Positions 25,230 to 25,946 of a stretch of 34,735 nt of DNA are shown piece after piece. Position numbers and translations under genes: made by a program. How positions within the stretch are numbered: position 1 is the stretch's first letter; the number at the start of each line of letters is the position of its first letter. This DNA is from Pseudomonadota bacterium (GTDB lineage Bacteria; Pseudomonadota; Gammaproteobacteria; Pseudomonadales; Moraxellaceae): assembly GCA_021848605.1 (NCBI GenBank), contig JAJZUM010000006.1:1-34735 (forward strand). Reading direction: 5' to 3'. Below the pieces are notes generated by a model. The model was not told where the DNA came from and ran no database searches. It was given only the letters and a program-made list of their open reading frames with translations.

Positions 25230-25946
25230 TCAATGTTCGGAGTGACGTTGCTGGTACTCCAGCAGGAATTTCTGTTGTAACAAACTGCCGGGTGTGTTGG
25301 GTAGCGCATCAAGCCAGTTTTTTTCAGCCTGTTTATCTTCACTTAAAGCAGAACGCTGGGCAGCAGAGTTTTGTTGCTGTTGCTGTTGCTGTTGCTGTTG
25401 CTGTTGCTGTTGCTGTTGCTGTTGCTGTTGCTGTTGCTGTTGCTGTTGCTGTTGCTGTTGCTGCTGTTGCTGCTGTTGCTGCTGTTGCTGCTGTTGCTGC
25501 TGTTGCTTATGAGCATCGTTGAGGTGTTTGCGTACAAGGTCACGGTTGTGACGGGCATCGTGCATGGATGGATCAAGCTTCAGCGCCTGGTCGTAAGCGC
25601 TCAATGCGGAAGCCAGGTTACCACTGCGGGCAAGGGCGTTGCCTCGATTGTACTCGGAAATTGCTGTGTGAAGCGTAGCCAATGTCTCTGCAGCATCAGC
25701 ATCACGATGGGCACTGGATTGAGCCCAGGCTTTGTGTATGGGGTCGTGGTAATAAGTGGCTGCGCGGTCGGGTTGATGTTGATGCATCCAGTAGTCCCCT
25801 AACTGGTTGTCATTAAACCATAGACTATTGTGCCATGACCAGGACCAGGCCGGTACAGGGATAAGGATAAGTAGGCTCCACAAAAATCCCAGCATCCACT
25901 TGGGGTGGATTGATGATTGTATCTGAATGAGTTTGATATGAGGCAT
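25230..25946 (-). CDS. Bat-operon TPR protein with a 45-residue polyglutamine tract
   Basis: A 238-residue membrane-anchored TPR protein, the BatC (or BatB C-terminal) counterpart. The ATG at 25946 is chosen because AGGAG lies 5 bases upstream; longer readings run into batB. Residues 17-36 form a signal anchor (WMLGFLWSLLILIPVPAW). Residues about 99-142 form one TPR plus a capping helix (YNRGNALARSGNLASALSAY, ALKLDPSMHDARHNRDLVRK). Residues 148-192 are 45 consecutive glutamines. The C-terminal 46 residues carry WLDALPNTPGSLLQQKFLLEY, which resembles the WLxxxPxxPGxLLxxKF motif of BatB/BatC proteins. A Q-rich linker here is common in the family; a pure uninterrupted tract of this length is not. 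It follows batB by 35 bp. Confidence 0.9.
   Translation of the reverse strand: MPHIKLIQIQSSIHPKWMLGFLWSLLILIPVPAWSWSWHNSLWFNDNQLGDYWMHQHQPDRAATYYHDPIHKAWAQSSAHRDADAAETLATLHTAISEYNRGNALARSGNLASALSAYDQALKLDPSMHDARHNRDLVRKHLNDAHKQQQQQQQQQQQQQQQQQQQQQQQQQQQQQQQQQQQQQQQQQQQQQNSAAQRSALSEDKQAEKNWLDALPNTPGSLLQQKFLLEYQQRHSEH
25371..25505 (-). repeat. compound CAA/CAG microsatellite encoding 45 glutamines
   Basis: In coding orientation the tract is five units of CAACAGCAG, then fourteen units of CAACAG, then CAACAA, without interruption: 135 bp, 45 codons. Both units are multiples of three, so slippage lengthens or shortens the glutamine run in frame. The sharp border at 25460/25461 between the nonamer and hexamer blocks suggests two separate expansions. 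Confidence 0.98.

What the first reader, a model, noticed from the sequence alone, without database searches (positions are those of the whole stretch)
25371..25505. Pure 45-glutamine tract built from two ordered microsatellites in a Bat-operon TPR gene
The sequence shows 45 consecutive Gln codons as five CAACAGCAG units followed by fourteen CAACAG units and CAACAA. Q-rich linkers occur in this family, but usually mixed with D, N, E or P. Here the DNA repeats are nearly perfect, so the tract is young or actively slipping. Both unit sizes preserve the frame, so length would vary in a graded way rather than switch the gene off. It lies between the TPR and the C-terminal WLxxLPxxPG motif, which suggests a tunable spacer or interaction tract in an envelope complex.
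Basis: partly seen in the sequence, partly recalled or inferred. Interest (0 to 1): 0.8.

Follow-up and report, generated by a model that had tools for sequence, protein, structure and literature searches.

The report
Slippery glutamine repeat in Bat gene
A run of 45 glutamines in a bacterial gene of little-understood function is real, and relatives in other bacteria carry such a repeat at the same spot, where its length changes so fast that the cholera bacterium's copy is already used to tell outbreak strains apart.

Summary
A same-genus genome (74% identical before the tract) carries at least 99 Gln there, and its contig ends inside the repeat; a more distant same-genus genome and two sister-genus genomes have no run. 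It belongs to a wider phenomenon. Of 90 BatB-TPR loci read from the genus of Vibrio halioticoli, 71 have a pure run of 10 or more Gln (up to 89). In all 66 that could be anchored it starts 4-13 residues after the last TPR helix. Length is hypervariable: none of 7 pairs at 95% identity or more share a length. Published primers place the cholera typing locus VCA0171 (unit gctgtt) in this same tract, so graded, in-frame length change, even within one patient, is in print for an orthologue. Gln runs in Vibrio TPR orthologues were noted in 2006, so this is a new member of a known kind. Unusual are the recurrence at one site in separate lineages and the near-absence of non-Gln interruptions. Most likely: a slippage-driven, length-tolerant spacer prolonging the TPR's last helix.

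The parts
25371..25505 (-). pure 45-Gln tract (codons 148-192)
25461..25505 (-). five CAACAGCAG units (9 bp), start of tract in coding order
25377..25460 (-). fourteen CAACAG units (6 bp)
25371..25376 (-). terminal CAACAA
25230..25946 (-). TPR protein gene of the Bat operon, 238 aa; TPR followed by the Gln tract
25833..25904 (-). hydrophobic N-terminal segment (signal or membrane anchor; by eye, aa 15-38)
   Evidence: sequence; in alignment A2 it lies opposite hydrophobic segments of fused BatB-TPR
25566..25652 (-). TPR unit (aa 99-127)
   Evidence: Pfam TPR_2 E 3.2e-10
25233..25316 (-). conserved C-terminal segment WLDALPNTPGSLLQQKFLLEYQQRHSEH (aa 211-238)
   Evidence: alignment of 17 homologues; predicted helix 219-235
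23472..25214 (-). BatD
   Evidence: Pfam BatD E 1.9e-15
25982..27049 (-). BatB-like VWA protein
   Evidence: Pfam VWA_2 E 1.1e-12
26983..27924 (-). BatA-like VWA protein
   Evidence: Pfam VWA E 4.2e-21
27921..28382 (-). DUF4381 protein
28379..29296 (-). DUF58 protein
29293..30270 (-). MoxR AAA+ ATPase
   Evidence: Pfam AAA_3 E 3.5e-61

Best explanation
The tract is an in-frame protein-coding microsatellite (variable-number tandem repeat) sitting at the exit of the TPR of the Bat TPR protein. Step 1, suggested by comparison: in unexpanded relatives the linker is already richest in Gln just behind the last TPR helix, which seeds CAR repeats. Step 2, shown for orthologues, inferred for the window: strand slippage gains or loses 6- or 9-bp units, so 2 or 3 Gln at a time, never breaking frame. 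Step 3, inferred: selection at the protein level keeps Gln there (CAA/CAG changes are common, changes to other residues almost absent) but tolerates a very wide range of lengths. Step 4, inferred: the tract continues the last TPR helix as a Gln helix of variable length, then frays into a flexible linker, setting the reach between the membrane-anchored TPR and the conserved C-terminal helix.
For: Same position: start 4-13 aa after the conserved Asn of the last TPR helix in 66 of 66 anchored loci with 10 or more Gln from the genus of V. halioticoli (81 of 90 loci could be anchored), in 16 of 17 anchored named loci (18 in all; 11 of the 18 are Vibrio and overlap the survey), and in 2 of 2 in the window's genus. 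Separate lineages: on a 33-row tree the window pair (support 100/99) lies in an f1 clade whose other three members lack the run, and the Zooshikella pair (100/100) is sister to a locus without it (99/97), apart from the Vibrionaceae group. Seed: in the 14 of 28 order-level homologues that could be anchored, Gln makes up 42% of residues 10-19 behind the anchor, the highest of 12 bins. Slippage: 45 versus at least 99 in one genus with the same units in another order; a 97.5% identical pair with 89 versus 26 Gln, and 0 of 7 pairs at 95% or more of equal length (three of the seven pairs are one trio). VCA0171: primers, unit and amplicon formula fit G584 (346 bp gives 13.0 units), where the array codes 28 Gln between TPR and linker, upstream of BatD; in print 19 alleles, 7-24 repeats, 13 and 14 repeats in one patient. 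Protein-level constraint: 66 tracts with 1707 Gln codons hold 86 breaks of CAA/CAG alternation (53 without the two CAA-rich tracts) but 1 non-Gln codon; window and G002 38 versus 0 in 144 codons. Helix: AlphaFold2 gives one helix from 129 to 188, ten-residue mean pLDDT 94-98 for residues 51-170, in line with a measured polyGln helix in the androgen receptor (PMC6497633, abstract).
Against: No isolate-level data exist here for the window's own species. AlphaFold2 may over-predict helix in polyGln (recall), and the model rests on 17 sequences. Two loci have their long run elsewhere in the linker: Photobacterium L127 at +155 and L024 about 60 residues downstream (by eye). Nineteen of 90 Vibrio-group loci show fewer than 10 Gln (three of them cut by a contig end or N-masked: L211, L244, L183), so a long tract is dispensable. 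The one order-level tract that passed the cut (L016, 13 Gln) does hold 2 non-Gln codons, and G002 has two Arg codons just past its 99 Gln. Slippage can itself spread a synonymous variant, so break counts are not independent events. The 66 loci of one genus share much history, and the named rows of the tree were chosen for having the array, so gains against losses were not tested formally.
Confidence: 0.62

Rival explanations
1. Neutral repeat: the Gln-rich linker is a tolerant place in which CAR microsatellites expand by slippage; length and purity have no effect on the Bat complex.
For: Very wide length range, including near zero; other in-frame repeats (GQQ, SQQ, DSQ) expand in the same linker of other loci; CAACAG arrays also occur in unrelated genes, such as FtsK-like proteins (by eye) of Proteus, and in non-Gln frames.
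Against: Non-Gln codons almost never interrupt the tract although CAA/CAG changes do; the position is fixed at the TPR exit in most carriers from several lineages; CAA-rich tracts give the same protein at the same place; in an even class sample only 3 of 273 other genomes hold any (CAACAG)7, and one of the three (G702) has it in a Bat linker; Bat genes hold 18 of the 34 long Gln-frame arrays among 80 listed (11 of the 18 are Vibrio).
Confidence: 0.3
2. Graded contingency locus: slippage creates a standing mix of lengths in each population, and different lengths are favoured under different envelope or oxidative stress.
For: Hypervariability in clones and within one patient at VCA0171; PMC3438101 remarks that VCA0171 repeat number tended to rise over time (passage); Bat proteins were proposed to act in oxidative stress (passages).
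Against: No result here ties length to a phenotype; in Leptospira biflexa loss of bat genes changed neither growth nor, detectably, oxidative stress resistance (passages).
Confidence: 0.15
3. Assembly artefact: the length or the order of units in the window is a product of short-read assembly.
For: Contigs of G002, G702, L063 and the Vibrio-group loci L211, L228 and L244 end in the tract, and L236 ends 73 bases past it.
Against: The window's tract is bridged with an intact reading frame and both flanks; records titled complete carry such tracts (V. pectenicida AP024890 52 Gln, V. comitans AP024867 15 Gln); Sanger-derived repeat counts exist for VCA0171 (PMC6905556, passages).
Confidence: 0.07

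Closest known systems
VCA0171 VNTR of Vibrio cholerae (MLVA typing locus, unit gctgtt)
   Same: Same hexamer (CAACAG read on the other strand), same gene family, same place behind the TPR, same neighbours BatA and BatD (sequence from G584, V. cholerae or a near relative)
   Different: There the TPR is fused to BatB and a long mixed linker follows; here the TPR gene is separate, the Gln run makes up most of the linker, and 9-bp units (CAACAGCAG) precede the 6-bp units
Gln runs in TPR orthologues of V. vulnificus and V. parahaemolyticus (ProtRepeatsDB, PMC1538635, passage)
   Same: Tandem Gln downstream of TPR motifs in what look like orthologous proteins; significance stated there as unclear
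   Different: In the passages seen, no link to the Bat operon or to VNTR typing; orthology to P0002 not checked by accession
Leptospira BatB/BatC (PMC3557215, passages; NCBIfam NF047507)
   Same: VWA and TPR proteins with BatA and BatD, fused or split
   Different: P0002 scores 38 bits against a cut-off of 175 for the Leptospira BatC model
Polyglutamine helix of the androgen receptor (PMC6497633, abstract)
   Same: Length-dependent helix in a Gln run; proposed analogy
   Different: Human transcription factor; analogy only, no homology claimed

Membership tests
Bat operon TPR protein (BatC / C-terminal half of BatB-TPR) | TPR domain | tested here: met
   Pfam TPR_2 E 3.2e-10
Bat operon TPR protein (BatC / C-terminal half of BatB-TPR) | gene next to BatA/BatB VWA genes, BatD and MoxR | tested here: met
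Bat operon TPR protein (BatC / C-terminal half of BatB-TPR) | conserved C-terminal LPxxP..LL..K helix | tested here: met
   alignment A2: motif of the window protein lines up with relatives, with a looser form in Vibrionaceae; L063 is cut by its contig end
Bat operon TPR protein (BatC / C-terminal half of BatB-TPR) | reaches curated BatC model cut-off | tested here: not met
   NF047507 (Leptospira-specific) 38 bits, cut-off 175; hence filed as the Bat TPR protein, not as a Leptospira-type BatC
In-frame coding VNTR | nearly perfect tandem units that keep the frame | tested here: met
In-frame coding VNTR | unit number differs between isolates of one species | not testable with these tools
   one genome of the species held; met in print for the orthologous VCA0171
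In-frame coding VNTR | unit number differs between close species | tested here: met
   45 versus at least 99 in the genus; 0 of 7 close pairs equal in the genus of V. halioticoli
Phase-variable on/off contingency locus | slippage shifts the frame | tested here: not met
   units of 6 and 9 bp

The most novel reading that the evidence does not exclude
A bacterial polyglutamine ruler: in several separate bacterial lineages a Gln helix grows straight out of the last TPR helix of the Bat complex, its length reset by hexamer slippage far faster than the protein evolves, so that populations carry a graded series of Bat complexes with different reach; the cholera typing locus VCA0171 would then be a functional dial and not a neutral marker.
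Probability: 0.2. Interest if true: 0.85.

Novelty: new member of a known kind. Interest (0 to 1): 0.55.

Why it matters
Long pure polyglutamine is best known from eukaryotic proteins and disease (general knowledge). Here it recurs at one site in a conserved bacterial operon of little-understood function, with 89 residues in one genome and at least 99 in another, and with almost no non-Gln interruption. Tying it to VCA0171 means that published cholera MLVA tables already record allele lengths of an orthologous tract, so the question whether a bacterial polyGln length is selected or neutral can be asked with existing data. It also warns that a marker treated as neutral may sit in a constrained protein segment.

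Tried and rejected
A switch-off contingency locus was rejected: 6- and 9-bp units keep the frame. A role of the antisense ORFs over the tract (25169-25522 and 25371-25802) was not pursued: CAR repeats hold no stop in any frame, so such ORFs are expected. The weak TFIIA match of the Gln run (below its cut-off) and the PDB matches to huntingtin and SWI1 I take as composition only. Among the 54 PDB sequences I saw none named as a Bat protein.

Script and call errors: one search failed (missing file); one search cut tracts at 30 residues and is replaced; one search was a dummy alignment of no meaning; one search failed because I gave a frame with stops. One search found no primer pair in the loci then held; one search repeated the question on 227 whole genomes. 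The zero for order-level homologues with 10 or more Gln holds only for the 14 it could anchor; one search shows one more, L024 with 18, not at the TPR exit. From I first took none of the three other class-sample arrays to be in a Bat gene; the re-check showed that the array of G702 (L264) starts at a contig end and runs into a Bat-type linker and tail followed by a BatD homologue, so that statement was dropped.

Literature limits: the held library only. 'vca0171' with 'tpr' or with 'tetratricopeptide' gave 0 papers; polyglutamine with VNTR, bacterial and Vibrio gave 0; other searches were (listings only, apart from the papers cited by passage). Papers in which VCA0171 typing was first set up (names recalled: Danin-Poleg, Kendall, Ghosh) I have not seen.

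Full report
The feature. TRF ranks it far above any other array in the window (214 against 79 for the next), and the exact 21-base pattern CAG(CAACAG)3 hits no other place in the 2.6 Mb, 219-contig assembly.

The gene. The neighbours, all on the minus strand, are MoxR (30270-29293), DUF58, DUF4381, BatA-like VWA, BatB-like VWA, the TPR gene, and BatD (25214-23472), by Pfam (the names BatA and BatB by order and by weak NCBIfam matches). The TPR protein has a hydrophobic N-terminus, one clear TPR, the Gln run, 18 mixed residues and the conserved WLDALPNTPGSLLQQKF tail. In the window's family f1 the gene is separate (open frames of 265-281 aa); in the other families sampled from the order the best matches lie in open frames of about 590-720 aa, mostly fused to BatB. 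Only 5 of 348 genomes of f1 have a match to its N-terminal part, three in the window's genus and two in genus g3.

Near relatives. G002 (same genus; 80% identical over a stretch that includes the tract, and 74% in the part before it) has at least 99 Gln, same units in another order, then Gln with two CGA (Arg) codons, and the contig ends there. No BatD was found in that genome, consistent with an assembly break at the repeat. G001 (same genus, 46% identical before the tract) and G004 and G019 (genus g3) have mixed Ser/Thr/Pro/Gln/Asn linkers with at most 3 Gln in a row. Among these five the run is thus confined to the G000-G002 branch, most simply a gain there.

Far relatives. Of those 80, 18 lie in Bat TPR genes by phmmer: 11 Vibrio, Enterovibrio, Photobacterium, two Zooshikella, Ferrimonas, Salinimonas and one MAG. 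Among the 34 listed arrays whose Gln frame is the longest and at least 200 codons, 18 are Bat TPR genes and 16 are other genes. In an even sample of 274 genomes of the window's class the array is rare: 3 others besides the window. One of the three, G702, again has it in a Bat linker: its contig begins in the array, which runs into a Gln-rich linker, a KIEQVLNKLDEKPGNLLQNKF tail and a BatD homologue (phmmer E down to 4.5e-39). The arrays of G750 and G710 lie in other proteins by eye.

A genus-wide survey. In the genus of the Vibrio halioticoli locus L074, 222 of 227 genomes have a match to its BatB-TPR part (matches may include VWA paralogues). I read 90 loci: the 30 best matches and 60 picked by me from the listed rest, not at random. 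The longest Gln run behind the TPR is 10 or more in 65 of 80 loci parsed by motif (median 21, maximum 89) and in 6 of the 10 others read by eye, so 71 of 90. Of the 19 below 10, L211 and L244 are cut by a contig end and L183 is masked with N. With a stricter anchor 81 of 90 were placed; in all 66 of these with 10 or more Gln the run starts 4-13 residues behind the conserved Asn of the last TPR helix, in a median of 185 residues to the protein's end. Among the named loci it does so in 16 of 17 placed (these overlap with the survey), and in the window's genus in 2 of 2. Exceptions are Photobacterium L127 and the order-level locus L024, whose runs sit further down. In the order sample itself long runs are rare: L024 is the only one of 25 loci from other families (L014-L038) with 10 or more.

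Separate lineages. A maximum-likelihood tree of 33 rows puts the window pair (100/99) in an f1 clade (100/99) whose three other members lack the run, the Zooshikella pair (100/100) beside a locus without it (99/97), and the Vibrionaceae in a third place. Salinimonas and the MAG L063 are unresolved; Ferrimonas joins the Vibrionaceae with weak support (89/73). The f1 rows fill under a quarter of the columns, and the named rows were chosen because they have the array, so this shows scattered carriers and does not count gains.

Turnover. Of 7 pairs at 95% identity or more, none share a length, with a median difference of 16 Gln; one pair at 97.5% has 89 and 26; three of the seven pairs are one trio. 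The median difference shows no clear growth with divergence (16, 6, 8, 7, 9, 11, 12 from the closest to the farthest class), as expected when length changes much faster than the protein.

The link to VCA0171. The V. cholerae typing locus VCA0171 has the unit gctgtt (PMC6905556, passages), a rotation of the reverse complement of CAACAG. The published forward primer (PMC4703203 Table 1, passages) was sought in the 227 genomes with up to 2 mismatches: 5 genomes had a match, and of the six places one, in G584, has 13 CAACAG units and the exact reverse primer behind it. The forward site has one mismatch; the 346-bp amplicon gives 13.0 by the published formula. The array there codes 28 Gln directly behind the TPR of a 631-aa BatB-TPR frame, preceded by the end of a BatA-like gene and followed by a BatD-like one (by eye). 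In print this locus has 19 alleles in one set of isolates, mostly 7th-pandemic (PMC3438101, passages), 7-24 repeats in the isolates VC1-VC21 from Thailand (PMC6125998, passages), 12 alleles among 138 isolates of one Bangladeshi site (PMC3884724, passages), and 13 and 14 repeats in colonies of one Haitian patient (PMC3377427, passages). Against that, one Mozambican set had more alleles at another locus (PMC5489214, passages). A 2006 database paper had noted Gln runs behind the TPR in Vibrio orthologues, shorter in V. cholerae and interspersed in Shewanella, significance unclear (PMC1538635, passage). I found no paper in the held library that joins these two facts.

Is the protein or only the DNA kept? 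In 66 tracts with 1707 Gln codons the strict CAA/CAG alternation is broken 86 times, 33 of them in two CAA-rich tracts (L180, L196), but only one non-Gln codon interrupts a tract; in the window and G002 it is 38 against 0 in 144 codons. Against this, the single order-level tract that passed the cut (L016, 13 Gln) has two non-Gln codons, and G002 shows two CGA codons past its 99 Gln. Tracts with fewer than 10 Gln codons were left out. CAACAG, CAACAGCAG and CAA repeats thus make the same protein run at the same site. This suggests selection for Gln, with the caveat that slippage copies synonymous variants, so events are fewer than counts.

How it may work. AlphaFold2 on the window protein with 16 relatives gives one uninterrupted helix from residue 129 in the TPR to 188 in the Gln run, confidence falling toward the end (88 for 171-180, 68 for 181-190), and a separate C-terminal helix 219-235 (mean pLDDT 80.4, pTM 0.59). 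A polyGln helix that grows with length has been measured in the androgen receptor (PMC6497633, abstract). I therefore take the tract as a helical, then fraying, spacer between TPR and C-terminal helix whose length is loosely held. The helix, the spacer role and any effect on the Bat complex are inference. Bat function itself is open: in Leptospira biflexa bat deletion left growth and morphology unchanged and no protective role in oxidative stress could be shown (PMC3557215, passages).

Verdict. It is a new member of a known kind, with a striking recurrence at one site that deserves a functional test.

Noticed in passing
L206, L224, L120, L100, L230, L245 (Bat linkers of Vibrionaceae loci): Further in-frame short repeats in the same linker (SQQ, GQQ, DSQ runs); in L224 and L120 the repeat reads AVS or SKA, which looks like a frameshift inside the linker, with a short open frame (517 aa) in L224.
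   Followed up: partly
window 25230-27049 versus other families of the order: BatB and the TPR protein are two genes in the window's family but mostly one fused gene in the other families sampled, which points to a gene fission between hydrophobic segments.
   Followed up: partly
L089, L104, L113 (Proteus): CAACAG-coded Gln runs of 22-31 in a large membrane protein that looks like FtsK (by eye), carried by three of the 16 non-Bat Gln-frame arrays.
   Followed up: no
L058 (uncultured Metabacillus): A 61-Gln run followed by Gln blocks separated by single Arg in what looks like a secreted cell-wall hydrolase (by eye).
   Followed up: no
L050, L051, L059 (one Kofleriaceae MAG): Three contigs of one MAG have CAACAG arrays at or near their ends, as if the assembly broke at such repeats.
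   Followed up: no
L264 (G702:C278): A Bat linker array at a contig end in another family (f126) of the class; the upstream half of the gene was not sought.
   Followed up: partly
window 16417-16466: Short 18-bp imperfect repeat in the acidic tail of a single-strand binding protein gene.
   Followed up: no
window 32378-32417: 21-bp imperfect repeat inside the gene of a sigma-70 factor.
   Followed up: no
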